In this document: positions 47,937 through 60,730 of the stretch, in pieces
Layout: every line of letters begins with the position of its first letter
Position numbering within the stretch: position 1 is the first letter of the stretch
Origin: Streptomyces davaonensis JCM 4913
GTDB taxonomy: Bacteria > Actinomycetota > Actinomycetes > Streptomycetales > Streptomycetaceae
NCBI RefSeq assembly: GCF_000349325.1
Contig: NC_020504.1
Span: forward strand, 4,436,053 to 4,500,052
Direction: 5' to 3'
DNA length: 64,000 nt
Position numbers and translations under genes: made by a program
The notes under the pieces: generated by a model
The model's input: only the letters and a program-made list of their open reading frames with translations
Databases searched by the model: none
What the model was told of the DNA's origin: nothing

Positions 47937-49703
47937 CTAGGACTGGGAGGGGCTCGGGTCGCCGCTGTCGCTCGGCGGCGGCGGCGATGACGAGCCTTCC
48001 GGATCGGTCGGCTCTCCCGTCCCGGACGGCGGCGGATCCGGGTCGGAGGACGAGGGCGGCGGATCGGTCGGCGTGGGTTCGGTCGGCGCCGGATCGGTGG
48101 GCGTCGGTTCCGGATCGGTGGGCGTGGGATCGGGCGTCGTCGGGGGCGGGTCGCTCGGCGTGGGGTCGGTGGGCGCCGGATCGGGACTGCCGGGACCGGG
48201 GCCCGGGTCGGAGGGGCTCGGCGCGGTGCCGTAGCCCTCGATGCGGACGACGGCTCCGGCGGGCGACACGGCGACCCGTGCGGTCCAGTACCCGGACGGC
48301 TCCCGCAGCGGATCGACGTACACCTTGATCGTGAACGACTTGCCGGGCGCGAGGGTTCCCGACGAGCGGCTCAGGTACAGCCAGGGCGCACCGGTGGTGG
48401 CGGACCAGCGCACGGGGGCGTCGCCGGTGGCGGTCAGGGTGATGAGCGTGGTGTCGCCGCTGTTGTCGGCGGTGACGTCGAGCTGTCCCGCGCCCTTCTT
48501 CCCGGCGCCGGTGACGCTGATGACCTCGACAGTGACGTCGGGCCTGGCGCCCTTGGCGTGGCGGCCGCCGGGGCTGCTGGCGTTGCCCGCGTTCTCGTAG
48601 CCGCCGCCCGCCGCCTCGCCGTCGAGGGCGTCCGGGCCCTGCGCCTCGCTGGCGCTGGCCGCCCGGCCCTCGACGTCCTCGCCGGTGGGCGTGGAGCGGT
48701 AGGCGGCCCACAGGGCGAGCACGGGCGCGGCGACGACGGTGGCGACGACGGTCGTGGTGACGGCACGCGCGCGCAGCCGGTCCCGGCGGGCGGCCCGGTC
48801 CTTGGGGTCCATCGGGAATCCGCGCCGGTCGAACCGGGGCGCGGTGCCCCGCGCGCGTGGGACGTGCGCCATGGCGGCGTGCAGGGCCGCGCGGGGTGCC
48901 TCCAGGACGGGCAGTTCGGCGGGGGTGACGGTGGCGCCGGGCCAACGGCCGGGGACCGCGCGCTCGGCGGTACGGCGGCAGCGGGGGCAGTCGTCGACAT
49001 GCCGGACCAGCTCGCGGCGCAGGGCGGTGGACAGGACGAGCTGGTTGTCGCCGGTGAGGCGGGCGACGCTCGGGCAGGTGCCGGTCTCCACCACGGCGAG
49101 GGCCGCGCGCGTGCGCTCCACCTCGCAGGCGGCGGAGGCGAGCAGCTCGCGGGCGGCGGCGGGGTCGGTGCCGAGGACGGCGGCGACCTCGTGGGCGGCG
49201 AGGTGGTGGCGTACGGCGAGTTCGAGCGCCTCGCGCTGTTCGGGGGTGGTGCCGGCGGCCTCCGGCCAGGCGAGCAGGGCGAGTTGCCTCCTGCGCTCCT
49301 CCTGGGCCCGCTCGGAGACGGGCGGGGCGGCGGGCGGTGGCCGGTGGGTGCCGTGGCGGCCCGCGGCGTGGGTGGCCTGACGTTTCTGCTTGGCCTCGGC
49401 GAGCTTGCGCAGACAGGACCAGCGGGCGAGGGCGTACAGCCAGGCACGGCGGTCGGCGGCGGACTCCGGGACGCGCTGACCGCGCCGCTCCGCCAGGGCG
49501 AGGACGTCGCCGAGGGCGGCGGTCGCGGCGTCGTGGTCGCACAGCACGGAGAGGCAGTAGGTGAACAGGCCGTCCAGGTACGGCTCGTAGCGCGCGGGCG
49601 GGCGCTGCGCCAGGGTGCGCGCCGCGCCTCGGTCGCGCGCCTCTCGGTGCGCTCGGTGTGCGCCGGTGGTGCGGGCGGAGGTCTCCGGGCGGCTGCTCGT
49701 CAT
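47937..49703 (-). CDS. Sigma-like / zinc-finger / TM / BACON-domain protein
   Basis: 588 residues from ATG 49703 (a GTG at 49754 would add 17 residues). About 40-210 looks like a degenerate ECF-sigma type helical region (DGLFTYCLSVLCDHDAATAALGDVL ... EQREALELAVRHHLAAHEVAAVLGTD). Next is an anti-sigma-like zinc motif H235-x3-C239-x2-C242. One TM helix spans 314-334. Outside lies a beta-sandwich of the BACON type (about 405-492, WSATTGAPWLYLSRSSGTLAPGKSFTIKVYVDP), and the C-terminus is a long PTDP/SDPPP repeat to the end. The fusion of sigma-like and ZAS-like parts in one membrane protein is unusual. Function unknown. Confidence 0.75.
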   Translation of the reverse strand: MTSSRPETSARTTGAHRAHREARDRGAARTLAQRPPARYEPYLDGLFTYCLSVLCDHDAATAALGDVLALAERRGQRVPESAADRRAWLYALARWSCLRKLAEAKQKRQATHAAGRHGTHRPPPAAPPVSERAQEERRRQLALLAWPEAAGTTPEQREALELAVRHHLAAHEVAAVLGTDPAAARELLASAACEVERTRAALAVVETGTCPSVARLTGDNQLVLSTALRRELVRHVDDCPRCRRTAERAVPGRWPGATVTPAELPVLEAPRAALHAAMAHVPRARGTAPRFDRRGFPMDPKDRAARRDRLRARAVTTTVVATVVAAPVLALWAAYRSTPTGEDVEGRAASASEAQGPDALDGEAAGGGYENAGNASSPGGRHAKGARPDVTVEVISVTGAGKKGAGQLDVTADNSGDTTLITLTATGDAPVRWSATTGAPWLYLSRSSGTLAPGKSFTIKVYVDPLREPSGYWTARVAVSPAGAVVRIEGYGTAPSPSDPGPGPGSPDPAPTDPTPSDPPPTTPDPTPTDPEPTPTDPAPTEPTPTDPPPSSSDPDPPPSGTGEPTDPEGSSSPPPPSDSGDPSPSQS

Positions 49704-49840
49704 CCGTGGACCGTAGGCGCGTCGGGGAGGCACCTTCTCCCACCTTGAGCACATTTAATTCGTACGGGTGAAACGATCCCTCATAAGGGGACAGGAACGC
49801 CTCGTTCCATGGCCGGTTCCCGGTCGTCGTGGCTGGTTCC

Positions 49841-52800
49841 TTACTCGGGTACGTCGAAGCCGGGGAGGTGCATGCCCGGTTCGTCGTAGAGCAGGGAGAG
49901 CTGGTGATCGCCACCCTGGACACGCAGCCACCACAGGGCCCGCGGGAGCTCCGCGACGGAACCGACGCCGCTGAGGAAGCGGTCGACGAACGCCCGGAGG
50001 CGGTCGCACTCCGAGCCGCAGCTCCCCGGGTGGGGGGCCGTCGTCCACAGGACCACGCCGTGGCCGCGCGTGAGCAGCCGGGACATGATCTCCCGGCCCG
50101 GGCCACGGCTGACGGGGCCGCAGAGAACCGGGAACGCACCCCGCGGACAGCCGCCCACCGACGCCGGATTCGCGCCGATCGGGACATGCCACGCGGAGAC
50201 GCCTTCCGCGCGACGCAGCGCAGCGTCGACGGAGGACCATTGCTTCGCCGACGACACGGGCCGGTCCGCGAAGCGGATCGTCACCGGCCGCTGCGTCCCC
50301 AGGGACTGCCACTCGCGTCCGGGGGCGGGCCAGGTGTGCGGTGCCAGGTCGAAGGACCTCAGAGGCAGGGCGAACGCCACCGGCGTCGGACGGTACTGCG
50401 TGTCCGTACCGGCCAGAACACCGCGCAGCGGATTCGCCAGCTCACGCATCAACGCCTCGCGCCTGGTCCACGAGTAGCTCACGTGCTTGGGGTCCCACCG
50501 GGATCCCTTGGACACGTAGATGCTCCAGCGGACGGACGAACGCCGCATGGCCGCGCCGGACGCCATCACCAGGACACTGGCGTCGGAGCGGACCCGCGAG
50601 GCGCCGCGGATGACCACGCCCGAACGCCTGTCGGCCCGGGACGCGGCCGTCGTGTCCCCGGCCTGTTCGTACGCCTCCTTGGCCGCTTCCCAGTCGTCGC
50701 GGGCCGCCGGGTACTGATGCAGTTCCTCACGAGCCCGGGCACGCACCTCGATGGCCTGGGCCTGCGCGTGCACGTCGCCGAGTTCGCCGTACAGGGCGAT
50801 GGCCTCGTCCGCCGGACCGATGGCCTCCTGCACGCCCCCGGTGCTGCACAGCGCCTCGGCCCGGATGAGCAGAGCCCGTGCCGTGCCCGGGCGGTCGCCG
50901 AGCGAGCGGCTGATCTCGGTGGCCCGCCGCAGGGTGTCGAACCCCTCCGCGTAGCCGCCCATTTTGAGGAGAGTCGAGCCGAGGCTCAGCTCCACCGCCG
51001 CCTCACCCCGACGGTCGCCCACTCGCGCCAGTGCGTCCCGCGCCGCGGTGTAGTGGTCCCTCGCCGACTCCCACTGTCCCCCGACCTCGGCCACCCGGCC
51101 CAGGGCTTCGCGCGCCTTCGCGGCCCCCCACGCGTCGCCAGCTTCCTCGTGCAGGGCCAGTGCGCGCAGGTGCGCCGCGGTCGCGTCGGCCAACTGGCCC
51201 GTCCCGCACAGCGCCTCGCCCCTCAGGTTCCACAGCTGCGCCGACTCCCGCGGCCCCGTGTCCCGCTCCAGGGCCGCCGTGCAGCAGTCGAGGCTCAGCG
51301 CGAAGTGCCTGCGCCAGTTCAGGTAGGCGACCAGGTGCAGGGTGAGGTCGACGATCTGCGCGTCCACGGCGTCCGCGGGCGACTCGCGGATCTGCGCGAT
51401 CAGGCTGGGGTGCTCGCCGTCCAGCCAGGCCAGCGCGTCCTCCCGCCGCTCGGGACGGTCGTCCCCCGGGCGGCCTTCCGTGCCCAGAACCCGTACGGCG
51501 TCCTTGGTGCGGTCGAGGCAGTAGGACAGCAGCTGTGCCCGGGCCTGAGCCGCCTCCGACCGGACCTCCTCGTCCTCCGTCAGCACCTGTTGGACGTACG
51601 CCTTGGGCAGTTCCAGCACACGCAGGCGTCTGTCGCGCCGGACGGCCATGCCGGTGTCGAGCAATGCGCGAACGGCCTCGTCGTCCCCGAAGAACAGCTC
51701 CTCGGTGGGCTCCGGTCCGAGGTCGTCGCCCGGTACCGCCGCAAGCAGCCGCAGGGTCCGTGCGCACCGGGAGGTGAGGCTCGCGTACTCGGCGTCGAAG
51801 ACGTCCCTGAGATCGTCGAAGGCATGGAAGATCCCGCCCGACCCCTCGATGTGGGTACGCGTCTCGGCGAGCCGACCGGGCTGGTGCGCCGCGATACGCA
51901 GGGCGAGCGGCACGCCCCCGCACAGGTCGGCCAGCGCCTCCGCCGCTCGGCGTTCGGAGCCCGGTGCGTCGAGAACCGCCGTCGAGGCCGCCAGGGACAG
52001 GGGATGCAGCACCCTGCGTCGTTCTTCGGGAACCCCGCTCCCGCCGCGGGAGGTGAGCAGTACGTGGAAGCGGCTGCGGGCGGTGATGTTCCAGGTCCGG
52101 GTCGCCTCTTCCCAGGTCGTCCCGTCGTGCACGATCAGCACGGGCCAGCGGCCCTCGCGCAGCCGCGAGCGGGCGAGGGCCACGGCGCCGGCCGCGTCGG
52201 GCCCGCTCGGGATCCAGTAGGCGCCGCCGGGGAACCAGCCGCGTTCCACCGCCGCTCGCGCCGCCGCCACCGCGAGCGCCGACTTGCCGATTCCCGGCAT
52301 GCCGTTCACCAGGGTGTAGCGCTGCTCGGTGATCGTCGCACGGGCGTCGAGGAGCCCCAGCACATAATTGAGATCGCTCTCCCGTCCGGTGAACGCCGCC
52401 GGCACCGGGGGCAACGACAGGCGGTCGGTGCGTGGCGCGTCGTTGCCGAGTACCCGGGTCAGCACCTCGGCGGCCCGGTCCACGGCTGCCCGGCCGACCG
52501 CGCAGACGGTGAAGTGCTCGGCGGCGGGAGTGGCATACGCGGCGGTGAGGCAGACCTCGTCCCTCGGGTTGTCCGCACGCACCCGCTCGTAGTAGGCGCT
52601 GTTGCCCATGACCACGCGTGCCGTGTCCACCAGCCGTGGGGAAGGTCTGACGGTCAGGCCGGGCAACTCGACCTCGGTGGCCACGACGACGTCGCCGAAC
52701 TCCAGCCTGCGCTGCGCCCCTTGCCCGTGCACCAAGGACATCACCAGCGTCGCACCGTGGTCGCGACCGGCCGCCATGGCCACCTGCCGGTACGGCGCGT

Positions 52801-53434
52801 GCCGGTTCAGGGCGGTGACGGCGGGCATGAGGACCGCATGCCGTTCGGTGCCGACGAGAGTGCCACTGATCAGGCCGTCACCGAGCCGTCTCCGGTCGGT
52901 CAGCCGGGCGGCCACCGCCGCGTGCAACGTGTCGGACGCGGTCAGGATGAGGACGGTCCCGGTCTCCTCCTCGGCCTCCTCCTCGTCGGGCTCGGGGACC
53001 TCCGGTTCGCCCGGCGCCGGCAGTGCCACCTCGATCTCGGTCACCGGCGAGCCCTGGCCCGCGCCGTTCAGCCGGACCGGAAGACGCTCGCTGCGGAACG
53101 GCACTCCGCCCGCGGTGATCAGGGTCAGCCGCAGTGCCGTGTCACCGCCGGGGCCGTCGCCGACCGGGTAGGTGACGAAGCGGACCGGGCCGTAGGTTCC
53201 GCCGAAGCGGTGCAGGACCAGCGTGGTGTTGCCGACGGACTCGACGGCGAGGCGGGGTTCGCCCTCGAGCATGCAGCCGATGGCGTACTCCTCGCTGTCG
53301 TACGGCCAGGCGCCGTCGGCCGCGTCGAACTCGACGTCGACCGTGACGAGGTACCGCCGCCCGGCCTCGGCCTCCTCGGGCCAGCTCACGAGGGGCCGCA
53401 GGGGGACGGACGGCCGGTCCGTCCGAGTGGTCAC
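49841..53434 (-). CDS. NB-ARC/TPR STAND ATPase with VMAP-C-like domain
   Basis: 1197 residues, last gene of the operon, starting GTG 53434 in a 4-base overlap with the CHAT gene. Order: a beta-rich N-terminal domain (1-130), an acidic linker (145-158), an uncharacterised alpha/beta region (159-330) that could be a degenerate nucleoside-phosphorylase-like fold (LEFGDVVVATEV), then NB-ARC: Walker A GMPGIGKSA (378-386), Walker B PVLIVHD (431-437), FHVLLTSR, GGVPLALRIAA. TPR repeats follow (about 700-910). The last 270 residues end LPRALWWLRVQG then LSLLYDEPGMHLPGF and include GHGVVLWTTAP, matching the pattern of VMAP-C domains. Probable switch/sensor of a conflict system. Confidence 0.8.
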   Translation of the reverse strand: MTTRTDRPSVPLRPLVSWPEEAEAGRRYLVTVDVEFDAADGAWPYDSEEYAIGCMLEGEPRLAVESVGNTTLVLHRFGGTYGPVRFVTYPVGDGPGGDTALRLTLITAGGVPFRSERLPVRLNGAGQGSPVTEIEVALPAPGEPEVPEPDEEEAEEETGTVLILTASDTLHAAVAARLTDRRRLGDGLISGTLVGTERHAVLMPAVTALNRHAPYRQVAMAAGRDHGATLVMSLVHGQGAQRRLEFGDVVVATEVELPGLTVRPSPRLVDTARVVMGNSAYYERVRADNPRDEVCLTAAYATPAAEHFTVCAVGRAAVDRAAEVLTRVLGNDAPRTDRLSLPPVPAAFTGRESDLNYVLGLLDARATITEQRYTLVNGMPGIGKSALAVAAARAAVERGWFPGGAYWIPSGPDAAGAVALARSRLREGRWPVLIVHDGTTWEEATRTWNITARSRFHVLLTSRGGSGVPEERRRVLHPLSLAASTAVLDAPGSERRAAEALADLCGGVPLALRIAAHQPGRLAETRTHIEGSGGIFHAFDDLRDVFDAEYASLTSRCARTLRLLAAVPGDDLGPEPTEELFFGDDEAVRALLDTGMAVRRDRRLRVLELPKAYVQQVLTEDEEVRSEAAQARAQLLSYCLDRTKDAVRVLGTEGRPGDDRPERREDALAWLDGEHPSLIAQIRESPADAVDAQIVDLTLHLVAYLNWRRHFALSLDCCTAALERDTGPRESAQLWNLRGEALCGTGQLADATAAHLRALALHEEAGDAWGAAKAREALGRVAEVGGQWESARDHYTAARDALARVGDRRGEAAVELSLGSTLLKMGGYAEGFDTLRRATEISRSLGDRPGTARALLIRAEALCSTGGVQEAIGPADEAIALYGELGDVHAQAQAIEVRARAREELHQYPAARDDWEAAKEAYEQAGDTTAASRADRRSGVVIRGASRVRSDASVLVMASGAAMRRSSVRWSIYVSKGSRWDPKHVSYSWTRREALMRELANPLRGVLAGTDTQYRPTPVAFALPLRSFDLAPHTWPAPGREWQSLGTQRPVTIRFADRPVSSAKQWSSVDAALRRAEGVSAWHVPIGANPASVGGCPRGAFPVLCGPVSRGPGREIMSRLLTRGHGVVLWTTAPHPGSCGSECDRLRAFVDRFLSGVGSVAELPRALWWLRVQGGDHQLSLLYDEPGMHLPGFDVPE

Positions 53435-54747
53435 GGCCTCTCACCCCCCGCGCATGCCTGTGCGTGCGGCGCCTCCAGGGACAGTGTGGTCCCCGGATGG
53501 CCGAAGTAGGCGTACATGAAGCCGTTGAAGAATCCCTCGATCGCCGTTTCGGCGCGCTCCGCGTCACCCGCGACGATCGCCGCCTCGGCCTCGCGGGCGT
53601 GGTGGGCGCGGTGCTCGGTGAGGGCTTCCGCGAGGTTGACCGGTCGCTTGCGTGCGCCGGCGAGCAGGCGCACCGCGAAGTCGTGCGCGTCGGCCTTGCT
53701 GACCTCCGCGAGCGTGGCGATGACCGCGCCGGCGCCCCAGCGGAGGAAGACCTCGGCGAAGGTGGCGGGCACGGCGGCGTTGTACCGGTCGTCCGCGACG
53801 GGACGCGCCGAGACGCAGGAGTTGATGAGGACGGCCGCGCCGTTCTCGTACAGGGCGTCCATCCGCCAGTCCTCCGACAGCTCGGGCAGCGAGACGTCGC
53901 CGAGCGTGAACTTGTCGGGGTCCGTGGAGTAGGTGCCGTGGCAGCGCATGAGGAGCAGCCCGAAGGTGGTCCGCCGGTCCCTGAGACGGTGGTGCAGCTC
54001 CGTCATGGTGGTGGCGCGGGTCCCCGTCTCGTGCTCGCCGACGCGGTCGTGGGGGACGGCGAACTCGGGGTCCTCGTAGACCAGCACCCCGCCCCGGGGC
54101 TTTCGGGGCTGCGGGACGTAGTGCGAGGCGCGGGTGCCGTCCCACACCGTGGTCCAGCGGACCACGGGCACCGAGGCGCCGACCCAGCCGCCGGTGTCAC
54201 CGGCCGGGTCGAGGGCCGGGGCGCTTCCGATCCGCTGCCGGTAGAGCAGCTCCCAGGGGATCTCGTACGGCGTCTGGTCCCAGACCACCAGCGTCGGGCG
54301 CTCGGCCGATCTCAGCCAGTCGACCCAGGCCATCAGCGTCGGCTCCGTCTTCCACCAGCCCTTGAGCCGGCGGTAGGCGGAACGCCAGCCGGAGTGGGCC
54401 GCCAGTTCGACGAGGCGCGGCAGGCCGATGTCGGGCCGGCCGCGATGGTCGAGGTCGCTGGGCCGATTGGCGGTGCGCACATCGCCTCGGTGGTGGAGAT
54501 ACAGCTCGAAGTTGGGGCGGCCCGCGTACGTGGTGCTCTTGACGCACAACAGAGCCGTACCGGCCGGGAGTTCGTCGGACAGGTGGGCGTTCTCGGGGTC
54601 GAACCCCTGGGCCTCGGGCGGCTCTTCGACTCCGTCGAGATCGTAGTGGGGGGCGCCGGTCGAGTCGGTGCTGTCGTCCGGTAATCCGCTCACCGCACCC
54701 ATGTCGGCGTGGAGTCTGCTGCGCAGGCTCGTCGACTCCGTGGTCAT
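53431..54747 (-). CDS. CHAT-domain caspase-like protease
   Basis: 438 residues from ATG 54747, overlapping the vWA gene by 4 bases. The C-terminal half is a CHAT domain: IPWELLYRQRIGS (163-175), His270 in LLMRCHGTYS and Cys311 in AVLINSCVSARPV form the probable catalytic dyad, followed by FAEVFLRWGAGAVIATLAEVSKADAHDFAVRL. CHAT proteins are the bacterial relatives of caspases and gasdermin-activating proteases, and they serve as effectors of abortive systems. The N-terminal 60 residues are disordered and acidic. No signal peptide. It is expected to be kept inactive until the STAND and ATPase parts are triggered (inference). Confidence 0.88.
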   Translation of the reverse strand: MTTESTSLRSRLHADMGAVSGLPDDSTDSTGAPHYDLDGVEEPPEAQGFDPENAHLSDELPAGTALLCVKSTTYAGRPNFELYLHHRGDVRTANRPSDLDHRGRPDIGLPRLVELAAHSGWRSAYRRLKGWWKTEPTLMAWVDWLRSAERPTLVVWDQTPYEIPWELLYRQRIGSAPALDPAGDTGGWVGASVPVVRWTTVWDGTRASHYVPQPRKPRGGVLVYEDPEFAVPHDRVGEHETGTRATTMTELHHRLRDRRTTFGLLLMRCHGTYSTDPDKFTLGDVSLPELSEDWRMDALYENGAAVLINSCVSARPVADDRYNAAVPATFAEVFLRWGAGAVIATLAEVSKADAHDFAVRLLAGARKRPVNLAEALTEHRAHHAREAEAAIVAGDAERAETAIEGFFNGFMYAYFGHPGTTLSLEAPHAQACAGGERP

Positions 54748-56618
54748 CGTCGCGCCCCCGGTCTGCTCCTGGGCGTCACGACCAGCGTCGCGCCGAGGGC
54801 CTCGGCGAGTTCGGCGGGCAGTTCGGCGTAGTGGTCGAGGTCGGGTGCGATGACCACCGCCCGCATCCGGTTCAGCGGCGCCGCCGTGGCCGCGACGTAC
54901 AGGGCATCGTCGACGCCCTCGCGGTGCACGCCGCTCGGCGGACGGCCGCGCAGACTGGCGTCCAGGGGGACGTTGCCCCGGCCGTCGGTGACCACGACGA
55001 ACAGCACCTCGTCCACCACCGCGCGTCCTCGGCGCAGGAAGCGCCGCAGTTCGTGGACGCCGAGGTCGAGGGCGTGGGCGAGCGGGCTGGCGGTGCCCGG
55101 CGCGCGTTCCAGCGCTTCCAGCAGCCCGGGGTGGAGCAGCGAGGGCGCCCGGAAGCGCTCGGCGCACAGCTCGAGTTCGGCACCGCTGTGCCCGAACTCC
55201 ACCACGGTCACCGCGGCGTTCGACTCGTAGGCCCAGCGCAGATGCGGGGCGAGCGCGGCGCTGTGGTCCCAGTCCCGGCAGGAGTGGTCGAGGACCAGGA
55301 CCAGGGCGTGGGCCGGTTCGGGGCGCCGCCGGTACTGGCGCAGGTCCTTCGCGCGCAGGGTGAGCGGTCCGGTGCGCAGTGACTTGTCGAGCACCCGGGT
55401 CTTGGCCGCCTCCACCAGGCTCGGCACCAGGGCGAGGTCGTGGACGTCACGAGCGCGCATCGTGCCGACCGGGCGGCCGTTGAGCCGCTTGGCCACGGTG
55501 CGGCGGCGGTTCGGGGGGCGCAGGGAGCCGAGTTGGGGCAGGGCGTCCGGGGAGTCCTCGGGGTAGGGGGCCGGCTCCTTGGCCGCGCGCGGGGTGACCG
55601 CGGTCTCGGGCAGCGCGAGGGGTGGTTCGGGTTCGACCGCGAGGCCGGGGGCGTAGGAGACCTCGGGAGGCGGCGGCTCCGGTCCCATCGGCGGCACGAC
55701 GGTGGGATGTGATCCGGCGTGCGGTTCCGGGAGCAGCGGGTCGAGGGAGGGGCGGGGAAGCGGGATGCCGAGCAGGTCGGCGGCCGCCATGACATGCCGT
55801 ACCTCGGTGCGGCGGGCACCCGCGTGGGCGGCGAGTGCCCGTGCGGTCCGGGCCAGGGCCAGGCCGCGCCGCATGCCCGCCACCCCGGCGACCATGGCCG
55901 CCACCCGGTGGCCCGCTCCCGGCGTCAGCAGGGGGCGCGGCCCGTCCTCCGGTACGTAGGGAAGGAGAGGGAGCGCCGAGACGAGGGACTCGCGTTCGGC
56001 GGGGAGGTCCCAGAACCGTTCGGTACCCAGGCTCCACAGGGCGTCGTTCAGGTGTTCCGCCTCGACCCGTAGCGGAAACCGGTCCAGCAGGTGCGGGGAG
56101 AGCCGGGGTGCCTCGGCCCGGTCCACGGCCGCCAGCCAGCGTGCCCGGGGGTGCCAGCGCAGACTGTGGTCGTGCATCTCGACGTGTCCGACGTCGGCGC
56201 CGATCAGCGTCACGGCGGCCCGGACAACGGCGGGACCGGCCTGGGCGAGGTCGGGGACGAGGACCACGGGGGGCGGCTCGCCGGGCTTCTCCACCAGCAG
56301 GCCCGGCACCAGACGCAGCCCTCTGTCGTCCAGCCGGGGCCGCAGCCACAGCTCGTCCTCCCCGAGCCAGGAGCCCAGGGTGTGTACGTCCCGCCCCGCT
56401 CCCATGTGCCGGGCCAGCCAGCTCCCCAGGGCCGGCAGCAGCTCCGGGTCGAGGTCGAGGAACAGCACTCCGCCGGCGTCGGGTTCCGTGGCGACGCAGC
56501 CGAGCAGGGTCAGGGCACGGGTGACGGCACGCTCCCTCGGGGACTCTCCGTCCGACGGCTCCGGGCGGGCGAGGGCCCGCGGGCCGTCCGGTGTCGCGGG
56601 TGCGGGGCTGTCCTGCAT
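54744..56618 (-). CDS. BchD-like protein: degenerate AAA domain plus vWA domain
   Basis: 624 residues. The N-terminal part (about 30-290) follows the Mg-chelatase D pattern of an AAA domain without Walker A; it keeps GGVLFLDLDPELLP and a LSPHLLDRFPLRVEAEH segment like the sensor/arginine-finger region. A Pro-rich linker (290-370) follows. The C-terminal vWA domain (about 430-610) begins ALVLVLDHSCRDWDH (Asp444); the MIDAS motif D-x-S-x-S is incomplete because the third position is Arg448. Later FVVVTDGRGNVPL is kept. It probably forms a complex with the MoxR-type ATPase encoded 3 bases upstream. Role: ATPase-linked adaptor. Confidence 0.82.
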   Translation of the reverse strand: MQDSPAPATPDGPRALARPEPSDGESPRERAVTRALTLLGCVATEPDAGGVLFLDLDPELLPALGSWLARHMGAGRDVHTLGSWLGEDELWLRPRLDDRGLRLVPGLLVEKPGEPPPVVLVPDLAQAGPAVVRAAVTLIGADVGHVEMHDHSLRWHPRARWLAAVDRAEAPRLSPHLLDRFPLRVEAEHLNDALWSLGTERFWDLPAERESLVSALPLLPYVPEDGPRPLLTPGAGHRVAAMVAGVAGMRRGLALARTARALAAHAGARRTEVRHVMAAADLLGIPLPRPSLDPLLPEPHAGSHPTVVPPMGPEPPPPEVSYAPGLAVEPEPPLALPETAVTPRAAKEPAPYPEDSPDALPQLGSLRPPNRRRTVAKRLNGRPVGTMRARDVHDLALVPSLVEAAKTRVLDKSLRTGPLTLRAKDLRQYRRRPEPAHALVLVLDHSCRDWDHSAALAPHLRWAYESNAAVTVVEFGHSGAELELCAERFRAPSLLHPGLLEALERAPGTASPLAHALDLGVHELRRFLRRGRAVVDEVLFVVVTDGRGNVPLDASLRGRPPSGVHREGVDDALYVAATAAPLNRMRAVVIAPDLDHYAELPAELAEALGATLVVTPRSRPGARR

Positions 56619-56621
56619 GGA

Positions 56622-57671
56622 TCAGCCCCGGACGCCCGCGAGCAGGTCCCGCACCTGGTCGTCGTCCTCCTCGCCCCACAACGGCAGGGTGCCCGTGTCG
56701 CCCCTGCCCCGGCGGTGGAACAGGGCCGATTTCGCCACGTCGTTCAGGTGCTGGACGGTCACGTGCGACGCGCCCTCGATCGCCGCGAGGGCATGGGCGG
56801 CGCGCAGCAGGACGATCTCCCCACGGTGACCGGCGAGTTGGAAGCCCTCGGCGAGCACGGCACAGCCGGTGTAGACGACGGGCTCGATCACGACGCCGCC
56901 CAGGCGGCCTCGTGCGGCCTCCAGAGCGGCACGTTTGTCGGCGTCGGCCTGGAGTGCCTCGGCCATGAACTGCGAGGACGGGTCACCGCGTTCGGTCTCG
57001 AATCTGAGCACCGTCTCGACGATGCGCTGACGCTGCCTCGCCTCGGACTCGGACTCGACCGCGGCCACGAGCCCGAAGCGGTCCAGCAGTTGGGGCCGCA
57101 GCCCGCCCTCGTCCGGGTTCATGGTCCCGACCAGGGTGAACTCCACGTGCTGCGTCTGTTCCGAGCGGTGGTCGCGTTCCAGGGCGAGGATGCCGGTCGA
57201 GGCCGCGTCCAGGATGATGTTGACCAGGTAGTCGTCGAGCAGGTTGATCTCGTCGACGTACAGCATGCGGGCCTTGGACTGCGAAGCCCGCACCAGCAGA
57301 CCGTCGGACTTGTGGGTGTTGCCCCGCATGAGTTCCTTGATCTTCCAGCCGCCCAGCACCCGGTCGTCGGTCGCGCCGATCGGCATGGTCACGGGCAGGC
57401 CGCCCACCGCCATCTTGGTGAAGGCACGCACGGTGGTCGTCTTCGCCGTGCCGCGCTGCCCGGTGGCGAGCACACCTCCGACAGCCGGACAGACATACGC
57501 GATCTCCAGCGCGGTGCGCAGCTCCTCCTGGCCGACGATCAGTGAGTACGGCAGGACGGTCGCCAGGGCAGCCGCCTCCTGGGCGGCCTCGCGTTCCCAC
57601 TCCTCGGCGTACTCGGTGTCCTCCTGGGCCGGGTGGCCGTGGTCGTCCCGCACGTCGTCCGTGTCCGTCAT
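56622..57671 (-). CDS. MoxR/BchI-type AAA+ ATPase
   Basis: 349 residues from ATG 57671, overlapping the membrane protein gene by 4 bases. AAA+ features: Walker A GQRGTAKTTT (71-80; the usual Gly before Lys is Ala), Walker B MLYVDEINLLDD (136-147), sensor 1 GTMNPDEGGLRPQLLDRFG (182-200) with the arginine finger. The sequence is of the ChlI/BchI magnesium-chelatase group, but no tetrapyrrole gene is here. In combination with a vWA partner such ATPases remodel protein complexes. The N-terminal 35 residues are acidic. Confidence 0.9.
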   Translation of the reverse strand: MTDTDDVRDDHGHPAQEDTEYAEEWEREAAQEAAALATVLPYSLIVGQEELRTALEIAYVCPAVGGVLATGQRGTAKTTTVRAFTKMAVGGLPVTMPIGATDDRVLGGWKIKELMRGNTHKSDGLLVRASQSKARMLYVDEINLLDDYLVNIILDAASTGILALERDHRSEQTQHVEFTLVGTMNPDEGGLRPQLLDRFGLVAAVESESEARQRQRIVETVLRFETERGDPSSQFMAEALQADADKRAALEAARGRLGGVVIEPVVYTGCAVLAEGFQLAGHRGEIVLLRAAHALAAIEGASHVTVQHLNDVAKSALFHRRGRGDTGTLPLWGEEDDDQVRDLLAGVRG

Positions 57672-58696
57672 GGCTGTCCCTGTCCGCCGGTGGTGCCCTG
57701 GTCCTGAGGCGTGGTGTAGCGGAAGCCGGGCGGCAGGGGCACGCCCTGGCGCCACAGGTCGCACCACGCGGCCGCGGTCCTGCGTTCCTCGTCGGGCTCC
57801 TCGGGCACCGGTGCGCGCAGGGCCTCCAGCAGCGCGAACCGGTGCAGGTCGAAGGCGACGTTCAGGGACTCGCCGTAGGCCATGGCCGCCCGCACCGCTC
57901 CGCGGTAGGCCACCCACGACACGGCCAGCGGCAGGAGCGCCAGCGTCAGCCACCAGCCGGTCCGCGCCAAGGCGGCGGCCGCGATCAGGGCGGTGACCAA
58001 GGTGGTCACCGCCATCCTGGCCGCGGCGTCCATGGTGTCCCGGCGGTCGTCGACGACCGCCCGGACCGGCTCCCCCAGCACCGCGTACAGGCGCGGCCAC
58101 GCCACCACGGCGTCGTATCCGAACGAGCGCCCCGCGGTGTCCTCGGCGGCGGCAAGGGCGTTGCCCAGCGCGGTGGGCCGGATCAGGTGGTCGCGCAGCG
58201 GATAGCGCCGACGCAGTTCGTCGGCGGCCACTCCAGCGCGCTGTACGACCTCCGGCGCGACGGGGACGGACTGCGTCCAGACACCGGAGGGACCGGGCGG
58301 GACGGGGACGACGGCGGGCAGTTCGGTCCGCCGCTCCCAGGCCTGCTTCTTGCGCAACTGTCGCCCGCGGATCCAGCGGGCCCGGGTGAGCCACTCGGGC
58401 CAGGCGCCCTCCAGCAGCCGGACGACGGAGGTCTGGAGCGGGGCCAGCAGGACGGCGACGAGGGTGACGCCCAGCACGAGCAGCAATATCTCCCCGACAC
58501 CCAGAGCGGCGGCCGTCGCCCAGGCTCGGCTGAATCGGAGGGTCCCGTCGACCGGGGGCCGCCAGCCGCGTGCCCCCGCCCAGAACAGCACGAGGAGGAA
58601 GAAGGCCGCCGCGTACGTCGGCAGATAGCCCACCAGGAAGAACCGTCGTCCCCCGGCGAGCCCGGCGGGCGGCTGCATCGATGCGCCGAGCTTCAC
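57668..58696 (-). CDS. Multi-pass membrane protein of the VMAP-like operon
   Basis: 342 residues from GTG 58696, which overlaps the upstream stop by 4 bases (GTGA). TM helices are predicted at about 18-41, 65-88, and two more near 235-285 (MAVTTLVTALIAAAALARTGWWLTLALLPLAVSWVAYRG). Between the second and third is a soluble section of about 140 residues rich in charged residues. No family is recognised. It may anchor the ATPase/vWA complex to the membrane, or act as the membrane target of the response. Confidence 0.7.
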   Translation of the reverse strand: MKLGASMQPPAGLAGGRRFFLVGYLPTYAAAFFLLVLFWAGARGWRPPVDGTLRFSRAWATAAALGVGEILLLVLGVTLVAVLLAPLQTSVVRLLEGAWPEWLTRARWIRGRQLRKKQAWERRTELPAVVPVPPGPSGVWTQSVPVAPEVVQRAGVAADELRRRYPLRDHLIRPTALGNALAAAEDTAGRSFGYDAVVAWPRLYAVLGEPVRAVVDDRRDTMDAAARMAVTTLVTALIAAAALARTGWWLTLALLPLAVSWVAYRGAVRAAMAYGESLNVAFDLHRFALLEALRAPVPEEPDEERRTAAAWCDLWRQGVPLPPGFRYTTPQDQGTTGGQGQP

Positions 58697-59148
58697 CGCA
58701 CCAGCTCCATCACTCCGTGGGCGGTGCACCGGGGGAGGTTTCCGGCGTCGTAGTACGCGCGTAACTCGCCTCCGCCGCAGGTCCGGCACACGAACAGCAG
58801 GGCCCGGTAGTGCGTCGACACGCCCGGCAGGCCGGCGCGGTCACCGGCCCCCCAGTCCGCGGCGGCGCCGCCCGGGGGCGCCTGGGTTCCTGCCACGCCC
58901 AGGGACTCGCGGATGCGCGCACGCGTGCTGATGCCTATGCCGGCGCCGTCGGCGGCTCCGGGGACCCGGATCGCCACGCCCTCGTAGGTGGGATGGTCCC
59001 GGAAGAGGGCCGCGATCCGGCGGGCGAGGGGTGCCACGCGGTCCTGGTGCGGATCCGCGTCGACGGCGACGTCATACGTGGTCAGTCCGGGATCGACGAG
59101 TCCGCCGTACAGTTCCCGCGCCAAGGCGGCCAAGTCGTCGTCCGGCAC
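58693..59148 (-). CDS. Small zinc-ribbon-like protein, first gene of the VMAP-like operon
   Basis: 151 residues from GTG 59148, chosen for its aggagg ribosome-binding site. The N-terminal half (DDDLAALARELYGG ... FRDHPTYEGVAIRVP) is alpha/beta with no known match. The end has C-x2-C (FVCRTCGGGE) and C-x2-H (PRCTAHG), a probable zinc ribbon. It starts the operon of six coupled genes. No function can be given. Confidence 0.7.
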   Translation of the reverse strand: MPDDDLAALARELYGGLVDPGLTTYDVAVDADPHQDRVAPLARRIAALFRDHPTYEGVAIRVPGAADGAGIGISTRARIRESLGVAGTQAPPGGAAADWGAGDRAGLPGVSTHYRALLFVCRTCGGGELRAYYDAGNLPRCTAHGVMELVR

Positions 59149-59320
59149 CGGCCCACCCTCCTGCCCCCGCGGCGCGGCCACGCCACCACATGCCCTTCGT
59201 GGTGTTCGGTAAGCGCCGATTGTACGGAGATCCAACCGGGCGGGAAGGCCTGTTGCCCCAACTTCCCACGCTGTCCCGGGGCTCGGCGGGCTTGTCAGTG
59301 GCCCGCGTTACGGTGTGCGC

Positions 59321-60730
59321 ATGGCTGCCCGTACGAAGACCGCCAAGGAGCGTCCGTCCTACCGCTGCACCGAGTGCGGCTGGCAGACGGCCAAGTGGCT
59401 CGGTCGGTGCCCCGAGTGTCAGGCCTGGGGGACGATCGAGGAGTACGGCGCGCCCGCGGTCCGTACGACGGCGCCGGGGCGTGTCACGACGTCCGCGCTG
59501 CCCATCGGCCAGGTCGACGGACGGCAGGCCACCGCCCGCCCCACCGGAGTGCCCGAGCTGGACCGCGTCCTCGGTGGCGGCCTCGTGCCCGGCGCCGTGG
59601 TGCTGCTCGCGGGCGAACCCGGCGTCGGCAAGTCCACGCTGCTGCTGGACGTCGCGGCCAAGTCGGCCAGTGACGAGCACCGCACCCTCTATGTGACCGG
59701 CGAGGAGTCGGCGAGCCAGGTGCGGCTGCGCGCCGACCGCATCAAGGCCCTCGACGATCATCTGTACCTCGCCGCCGAGACGGATCTGGCGGCCGTGCTC
59801 GGCCACTTGGACGCGGTCAAGCCGTCCCTGCTGATCCTCGACTCCGTGCAGACGGTCGCCTCACCGGAGATCGACGGCGCCCCCGGCGGCATGGCGCAGG
59901 TGCGGGAGGTCGCGGGCGCGCTGATCCGGGCCTCCAAGGACCGCGGGATGTCCACGCTGCTCGTGGGCCATGTCACCAAGGACGGCGCCATCGCGGGCCC
60001 CCGCCTGCTGGAGCACCTCGTGGACGTCGTCCTGCACTTCGAGGGCGACCGGCACGCGCGCCTGCGCCTGGTGCGCGGCGTCAAGAACCGCTACGGCGCG
60101 ACCGACGAGGTCGGCTGCTTCGAACTGCACGACGAGGGCATTACGGGCCTTGCCGACCCGAGCGGACTTTTCCTGACCCGTCGTGACGAACCGGTCCCCG
60201 GCACCTGTCTGACGGTCACCCTGGAGGGCCGCCGCCCGCTCGTCGCCGAAGTGCAGGCGCTCACCGTCGACTCGCAGATCCCCTCCCCGCGCCGCACCAC
60301 CTCCGGACTGGAGACCTCCCGGGTGTCGATGATGCTCGCGGTCCTGGAGCAGCGGGGCCGGATCAGCGCGCTCGGCAAGCGGGACATCTACTCCGCGACG
60401 GTCGGCGGAGTGAAGCTCTCCGAGCCCGCCGCGGACCTCGCCATCGCCCTCGCGCTGGCCAGCGCCGCCAGCGACACCCCGCTGCCCAAGAACCTCGTCG
60501 CGATCGGCGAGGTGGGCCTCGCCGGCGAGGTCAGACGGGTCACGGGCGTGCAGCGACGGCTCGCCGAAGCGCACCGGCTGGGCTTCACGCACGCGCTCGT
60601 GCCGGGCGATCCCGGCAAGATCCCTCCCGGTATGAAGGTGCTGGAAGTCGCGGACATAGGGGACGCTCTCCGGGTCCTTCCGCGCTCGCGTCGCCGAGAG
60701 GCCCCACGGGACGAGGAGGACCGCCGGTAG
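59321..60730 (+). CDS. radA: DNA repair protein RadA
   Basis: 469 residues from ATG 59321. N-terminal C4 zinc finger (Cys16, 19, 30, 33: YRCTECGWQTAKWLGRCPEC), RecA-like ATPase with Walker A GEPGVGKST (98-106) and the RadA-specific KNRYG motif, then a Lon-protease-like C-terminal domain (NLVAIGEVGLAGEVRRV). RadA promotes branch migration during recombination. No ribosome-binding site precedes it, so translation may be leaderless. It is followed by disA 81 bases further on, a constant pair. Confidence 0.96.
   Translation: MAARTKTAKERPSYRCTECGWQTAKWLGRCPECQAWGTIEEYGAPAVRTTAPGRVTTSALPIGQVDGRQATARPTGVPELDRVLGGGLVPGAVVLLAGEPGVGKSTLLLDVAAKSASDEHRTLYVTGEESASQVRLRADRIKALDDHLYLAAETDLAAVLGHLDAVKPSLLILDSVQTVASPEIDGAPGGMAQVREVAGALIRASKDRGMSTLLVGHVTKDGAIAGPRLLEHLVDVVLHFEGDRHARLRLVRGVKNRYGATDEVGCFELHDEGITGLADPSGLFLTRRDEPVPGTCLTVTLEGRRPLVAEVQALTVDSQIPSPRRTTSGLETSRVSMMLAVLEQRGRISALGKRDIYSATVGGVKLSEPAADLAIALALASAASDTPLPKNLVAIGEVGLAGEVRRVTGVQRRLAEAHRLGFTHALVPGDPGKIPPGMKVLEVADIGDALRVLPRSRRREAPRDEEDRR

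What the first reader, a model, noticed from the sequence alone, without database searches (positions are those of the whole stretch)
49841..59148. Six-gene coupled operon that looks like a vWA-MoxR-VMAP/CHAT conflict system
Seen: six minus-strand genes joined by 4-base ATGA/GTGA overlaps (one 3-base gap) encode a zinc-ribbon protein, a four-TM protein, a BchI/MoxR AAA+ ATPase, a BchD-like degenerate AAA plus vWA protein, a CHAT protease with His/Cys dyad, and a 1197-residue NB-ARC/TPR STAND protein. Known: vWA-MoxR-VMAP ternary systems with peptidase effectors were predicted by comparative genomics (Kaur, Burroughs, Iyer and Aravind, 2020), and CHAT proteases are caspase-like effectors. Inference: here the VMAP-like C-terminal domain is fused to an NB-ARC-TPR module, the CHAT protease is a separate protein, and a membrane protein is added, so this may be a form of the system that has not been studied. 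The trigger and target are unknown.
Basis: partly seen in the sequence, partly recalled or inferred. Interest (0 to 1): 0.9.

Follow-up and report, generated by a model that had tools for sequence, protein, structure and literature searches.

The report
Caspase-like cassette with swappable sensor protein
A Streptomyces chromosome carries an accessory six-gene cassette in which a chelatase-like motor and a caspase-like protease are paired with a large, CED-4-like sensor protein; related cassettes keep the motor, the protease and a small adaptor domain but swap the rest of that large protein, which looks like a modular bacterial cell-death or immune device.

The parts
58693..59148 (-). gene A: small protein with C-terminal zinc ribbon (CRTC...CTAH), 151 aa
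   Evidence: 33% identical over 143 residues to the equivalent gene beside B and a TPR-CHAT gene in L055
57668..58696 (-). gene B: membrane protein (3-4 TM), 342 aa; member of a large actinobacterial family
   Evidence: CHAT gene verified next to B in 7 of 15 fetched loci
56622..57671 (-). gene C: AAA+ ATPase of the chelatase-I type (Walker A GQRGTAKT, Walker B LYVDE, GTMNPDEGGLRPQLLDRFG)
   Evidence: 47-52% identical to C of related loci
54744..56618 (-). gene D: chelatase-D-like protein, degenerate AAA region plus C-terminal vWA with partly degenerate MIDAS (DHSCR; SPLAHA; TDGRGN; MIDAS consensus recalled)
53431..54747 (-). gene E: CHAT (caspase-like) protease, His270/Cys311
49841..53434 (-). 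gene F: adaptor-nucleosidase fold-NB-ARC-TPR-VMAP-C protein, 1197 aa
53072..53434 (-). F residues 1-121: constant adaptor domain (HRFGGTYGP; one change in the motif in each of L084 and L085), no Pfam hit in the scans made
   Evidence: 75% all-pairs identity in 15 F proteins against 40-44% for the other domains; fused to other cargo elsewhere
52436..52960 (-). F residues 159-333: nucleosidase (MTAN/PNP) fold, catalytic-Asp loop missing
51365..52408 (-). F residues 343-690: NB-ARC and following helical region, Walker A GMPGIGKS
50585..51364 (-). F residues 691-950: TPR superhelix
49856..50578 (-). F residues 953-1193: VMAP-C domain
   Evidence: PF20028 72.0 bits, 2.9e-19, cut-off 27, profile 3-226 of 226
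49821..59274 (.). inserted accessory segment (approximate edges) between the BACON-domain gene (47937-49754, -) and radA (59315-60730, +)
   Evidence: edges by comparison with 5 empty sites

Best explanation
An accessory, protease-centred conflict (cell-death or anti-invader) system. Shown by sequence: a constant core of chelatase-I-like ATPase (C), chelatase-D-like vWA protein (D), CHAT protease (E) and a constant adaptor domain (F 1-121), with the rest of the adaptor protein swapped between loci. Inferred mechanism: the adaptor domain docks F onto the C/D/E core. F is held off by ADP-bound NB-ARC; its TPR, VMAP-C and pseudo-nucleosidase parts sense a trigger; nucleotide exchange then oligomerises F in the manner of CED-4/Apaf-1. 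The ATPase C acts through the vWA of D as a threshold-setting remodeller, and E is activated by induced proximity and cleaves cell proteins, or the variable linker of F itself, to free the cargo. A and B (zinc ribbon and membrane protein) are a module that elsewhere accompanies CHAT proteases and probably tethers or executes the response at the membrane.
For: C-D-E-adaptor order in 10 of 10 loci where all four could be seen: L022-L026, L081-L083, L084, L085; L021 and L027 show D-E-adaptor at contig ends. Adaptor-first search: 3 of 3 non-own hits carry C-D-E. CHAT dyad kept in 13 of 13. Adaptor 75% identical among 15 F proteins, other domains 40-44%. Cargo swaps: TIR-NB-ARC-TPR, trypsin-EAD2 and GlgX-like, Roc-COR in a database protein whose neighbours were not seen. 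Trypco1, VMAP-C and effector-associated domains belong to the conflict network of Kaur et al. (PMC7159879, passages read). CED-4 fold. Accessory insertion; D found in 7 of 150 genus genomes, own included.
Against: No phenotype, expression or binding data. PADLOC gave only a generic TPR hit and a marginal one. No phage or defence island shown beside it; the insertion site holds metabolic-looking cargo in one relative (L036). Adaptor docking to C/D/E is inferred from genomic constancy only; the adaptor was modelled poorly (pLDDT 27-65). The MIDAS of D is partly degenerate. E falls 0.3 bits under Pfam's CHAT cut-off. Full-length F is rare: of 61 relatives only the own genome has it, the other 5 with hits match TPR or VMAP-C parts.
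Confidence: 0.55

Rival explanations
1. A vWA-MoxR-VMAP ternary system, with C as MoxR, D as vWA, F as the VMAP and a stand-alone caspase-like peptidase.
For: VMAP-C in F; Kaur et al. note nucleoside phosphorylase domains at VMAP N-termini and occasional stand-alone peptidases (passages); Trypco1 beside related loci.
Against: C is chelatase-type and does not align significantly with the one VMAP-linked MoxR compared; D carries no detected C-terminal effector; VMAP-C was not detected in the 11 other C-D-E loci outside the window lineage while the adaptor is there each time.
Confidence: 0.2
2. Same machinery, but used for developmental or stress-induced programmed death in the Streptomyces mycelium rather than against phages.
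For: Caspase-like protease and CED-4-like protein; the named carriers of the core or adaptor are actinobacteria: Streptomyces, Kitasatospora, Actinoplanes, Nonomuraea. Genomes outside the class were not searched apart from the protein and plasmid databases.
Against: Patchy distribution (D in 7 of 150 genus genomes) and faster divergence of F at the same site (43% against 81% for the last 277 residues of D and 79% for the flanking gene) fit conflict better than development.
Confidence: 0.2
3. A regulator or immunity part of FxSxx-COOH peptide (RiPP) systems.
For: FxsB gene in 8 of 11 related loci outside the window lineage; cargo there is the FxSxx_TPR family in the three scanned plus L026.
Against: No FxsB, Trypco1 or TIR match in the 64-kb window and no FxsB in the held DNA of L084 and L085 (L027 is cut by the contig end); window F does not match FxSxx_TPR.
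Confidence: 0.07
4. C and D are a metal-chelatase motor for cobalt or magnesium insertion.
For: Best NCBIfam models are chelatase subunits.
Against: Scores are far under the curated cut-offs (243 of 779 bits); none of the six genes resembles a porphyrin-binding large subunit; coupled to CHAT in all 10 fully seen related loci.
Confidence: 0.03

Closest known systems
[quoted passage not shown] 2020, PMC7159879; abstract and passages read)
   Same: AAA+/vWA pair, VMAP-C domain, peptidase, Trypco1 and EAD2 in relatives, inactive enzymes as cargo, accessory in actinobacteria
   Different: AAA/vWA of the chelatase type; CHAT as a constant separate gene; constant adaptor domain in place of VMAP; VMAP-C only one of several cargo ends
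FxSxx-COOH peptide systems (NCBIfam FxSxx_TPR, FxsB)
   Same: eight related loci lie beside FxsB and carry TIR-NB-ARC-TPR cargo
   Different: no match to these genes in the window; cargo here has a nucleosidase fold and VMAP-C
CED-4/CED-3 and Apaf-1/caspase-9 (apoptosome)
   Same: NB-ARC protein next to a caspase-like protease
   Different: CHAT rather than caspase proper; no CARD detected; another kind of adaptor domain; a chelatase-like ATPase added
Magnesium/cobalt chelatase I-D pair
   Same: C and D sequences
   Different: no large subunit in the operon, partly degenerate MIDAS, operon of a protease system

Membership tests
vWA-MoxR-VMAP ternary system | VMAP-C domain at the C-terminus of the third component | tested here: met
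   PF20028 72 bits over cut-off 27 in F; over cut-off also in P0002, P0128, P0132, P0133, P0134, but not reported by hmmscan for F itself, P0003, P0004, P0125
vWA-MoxR-VMAP ternary system | MoxR ATPase of the VMAP-linked type | tested here: not met
   C matches chelatase models; two VMAP-linked MoxRs (L006, L013) match MadB; C against L013 17.7 bits. Only two comparators used
vWA-MoxR-VMAP ternary system | vWA protein with variable effector domains behind the vWA | tested here: not met
   vWA of D lies at the end of the protein; no effector domain found
CHAT protease | CHAT domain with His/Cys dyad | tested here: met
   23.7 bits against cut-off 24 in E, 38-49 in L024, L084, L085; dyad 13 of 13
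STAND NTPase (NB-ARC) | NB-ARC fold with Walker A | tested here: met
PNP/MTAN nucleosidases | fold | tested here: met
PNP/MTAN nucleosidases | catalytic aspartate in the RxxSD-like loop (motif recalled) | tested here: not met
   loop absent in 12 of the 14 F proteins that have the domain, altered in the other two
FxSxx-COOH system | FxsB radical-SAM gene nearby | tested here: not met
   no match in the window; rest of the genome not searched
Magnesium/cobalt chelatase | curated cut-off of chelatase subunit models | tested here: not met
   243 of 779 and 208 of 467 bits
Anti-phage defence system | protection against phage | not testable with these tools
   no experiment possible; PADLOC gave only a generic TPR and a marginal hit

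The most novel reading that the evidence does not exclude
A previously undescribed class of bacterial apoptosome-like system: a universal adaptor domain (HRFGG motif) plugs interchangeable sensors, some of them dead copies of host enzymes acting as decoys (pseudo-GlgX, pseudo-nucleosidase), into one chelatase-driven CHAT protease core; the window version is a mosaic that captured a VMAP-C end and a CHAT-associated zinc-ribbon/membrane module.
Probability: 0.35. Interest if true: 0.85.

Novelty: new variant of a known kind. Interest (0 to 1): 0.68.

Why it matters
It separates what is constant (chelatase-type motor, caspase-like protease, adaptor domain) from what is exchanged (sensor or effector), which makes the logic of AAA/vWA conflict systems testable in one operon: one protease mutant, one ATPase mutant and one adaptor pull-down would show who activates whom. 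It also puts a CED-4-like protein and a caspase-like protease in one operon, and shows a metabolic enzyme captured without its catalytic nucleophile as a candidate decoy.

Tried and rejected
Hmmscan of F for VMAP-C gave nothing; the genome search with the same family found it, so a hmmscan miss is weak evidence. The first AlphaFold model of F from 5 sequences was poor (pLDDT 56); 15 sequences gave 78.8. A profile of the nucleosidase-like region alone against PDB sequences gave only non-significant hits (8-amino-7-oxononanoate synthase E 0.029, MTAN E 0.2 and 0.5); fold and ortholog Pfam hits decided it. Metal chelatase as function: rejected on scores and context. Phage origin: no match of F in the phage collection at E 1e-10. 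Plasmids: no record covers 80% of F (17 records match, mostly NB-ARC/TPR); two core loci in the plasmid collection, one an 11.85-Mb record that looks like a chromosome by size. Three B-like loci (L068, L070, L071) lie beside genes that I read, by recall, as succinate dehydrogenase genes, so the B family is not only CHAT-linked. Repeats of 12 bases or more inside the two edge regions scanned: none. The adaptor fold: no statement; it was modelled badly and not searched alone.

Papers: Kaur 2020 (PMC7159879) abstract and found passages; Kaur 2021 (PMC8195603) passages; PNAS 2024 (PMC10907252) passages; Science 2023 (PMC10910872) passages; other papers seen only in search listings. Supplements were not open to me. 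'No description found' rests on the searches in an open-licence library.
Full report
1. Observation. The window is 69.7% G+C and lies in a 9.56-Mb genome in 2 contigs. Named close relatives of its proteins are Streptomyces.

2. The cassette is accessory. The gene downstream of F (47937-49754, BACON domain) matches in 37 of 41 genus genomes, own included. I fetched 20 regions, picked by me from the 36 non-own genomes (20 is the cap per call). The ends of the radA and BACON matches lie 114-214 bases apart in 18, 577 in one (L038), and about 5 kb in one (L036), which holds a transporter-like gene and others instead (gene names in L036 by eye). Against five of the empty sites, homology ends near 49798-49820 on the left and resumes near 59275-59292 on the right, so the insert is the six genes and little else. 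S. olivochromogenes (L021, named) has D-E-F followed by the same BACON gene; its contig begins inside D, so A-C cannot be seen there.

3. C and D are chelatase-like. C: NCBIfam Cob-chelat-sub 243 bits, BchI-ChlI 208. D: 67 bits to Cob-chelat-sub and 55 to BchD-ChlD, with the vWA motifs listed in parts. The ATPases beside two trypsin-VMAP-C genes of relatives (L006, L013; Pfam VMAP-C) match MadB, and C against one of them gives 17.7 bits. Kaur et al. place MoxR and chelatase in one clade of AAA+ proteins (passage), so 'MoxR clade' is fair and 'VMAP-type MoxR' is not.

4. E is a CHAT protease with His270/Cys311 aligned in 13 of 13 members (window, L021-L027, L081-L085).

6. Related loci. D as query: 7 of 150 genus genomes including its own, 1 of 148 in the class (own only). 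Adaptor as query: 4 of 147 in the order including its own, all of this genus, 1 of 188 in the class (own only). Two further loci come from the plasmid collection: Streptomyces sp. NBC_01483 (L084) and Nonomuraea gerenzanensis (L085). C-D-E-adaptor stand in this order in 10 of 10 loci where all could be seen; L027 is cut inside D by its contig end. Cargo behind the adaptor: TIR-NB-ARC-TPR in nine (Pfam for L023-L026 and L022; tblastn for L027 and L081-L083), trypsin-EAD2 in L084 and CBM48/alpha-amylase (GlgX) in L085. FxsB lies in 8 of these 11. Trypco1 matches upstream of C in 10 of 10 with that side held (tblastn; Pfam and NCBIfam checked only for L023). VMAP-C was not detected in any of the 11 (and Pfam for 7 of them). 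Among database proteins, whose neighbours I could not see, P0137 has adaptor-Roc-COR, P0139 adaptor-NB-ARC-TPR, P0140 adaptor-TIR-NB-ARC-TPR.

7. The L085 cargo is a GlgX relative (990 bits to 7u39) in which DGFRFD reads DGFRFA and DVVYNHT reads DVDYTHT; that this Asp is the nucleophile is recalled knowledge of the family. With the nucleosidase fold of F this fits the theme of inactive enzymes as decoys that Kaur et al. propose (passages). The trypsin of L084 keeps His and Ser motifs, so not all cargo is dead; the TIR domains were not checked for catalytic residues.

8. A and B. B belongs to a large family (315 proteins at E 1e-5 among the candidates scored, 120 listed): 13 of 150 genus genomes and 5 of 148 class genomes, own included. 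I fetched 15 loci: all 4 non-own places (L055-L058, one of which, G111, is also) and 11 more of the 14 non-own places (L061-L071); two places (in G004 and G086:C61) were not fetched. A CHAT protein is verified by Pfam next to B in 7 of 15: L055, L058, L062, L063, L065, L067, L069. The large ORFs beside B in L061 and L064 were not scanned. L056, L066, L068, L070, L071 showed no CHAT by a weak tblastn search, and L057 was searched with E only. Small Cys-rich proteins like A stand before B in L055, L061 and L062 (tblastn) and, by eye, in L063, L065, L067, L069. So A-B looks like a CHAT-linked module that takes the place of Trypco1 in the window-type operon. In five cases B and F homologs have the same longest-contig length (92312, 428488, 660395, 8541354, 151019), and in NPDC046915 the locus tags are 42555 and 42535; I infer linkage from this and did not read those contigs. 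A sixth match (72678) pairs a B homolog with P0139 in Kitasatospora sp. NPDC058406. No such partner is among the 120 listed rows for P0002 and P0003.

9. Reading. The evidence supports a modular protease system with a constant core and adaptor, and exchangeable cargo; the window version is a mosaic. Between the window and L021, at the same site, D (last 277 residues) is 81%, the BACON gene 79%, E 62% and F 43% identical, while the adaptor alone is 78%. This is what a sensor under conflict would show, but relaxed constraint or replacement are not excluded. Eight VMAP-C matches, F included, lie in the own genome, so cross-talk of F with other VMAP systems is possible.

10. Verdict. Real, accessory, conserved in the order C-D-E-F, and not simply a vWA-MoxR-VMAP system. 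I found no description of the chelatase-type core with CHAT and adaptor in the papers and passages listed, but supplementary tables were not readable, so priority is open.

Noticed in passing
L085:12061-14559: Nonomuraea gerenzanensis: adaptor domain fused to a full-length GlgX-like glycogen debranching enzyme with Asp-to-Ala at the nucleophile motif, right after a CHAT gene.
   Followed up: partly
L084:12013-13494: Adaptor-trypsin-EAD2 protein in the same core on a 1.56-Mb linear plasmid of Streptomyces sp. NBC_01483.
   Followed up: partly
L055:8560-15702; L062, L063, L065, L067, L069: Actinobacterial trio of CHAT protein, small zinc-ribbon-like protein and 3-4 TM membrane protein, apparently a system of its own.
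   Followed up: partly
G000 (window genome): Eight VMAP-C matches in one genome; 49 of 61 genus genomes have at least one.
   Followed up: no
L036:10284-15320: A different ~5-kb cargo (MFS-like transporter, secreted hydrolase-like, PaaX-like regulator by eye) in the same radA/BACON gap: perhaps a small insertion hotspot.
   Followed up: no
L057:8498-10582: A B-like match in two pieces lies next to an IS30-like ORF (identity of the ORF by recall).
   Followed up: no
window:10588-10679: ARAGORN tRNA-Ala (AGC) call lies inside long ORFs on both strands; probably a false positive.
   Followed up: no
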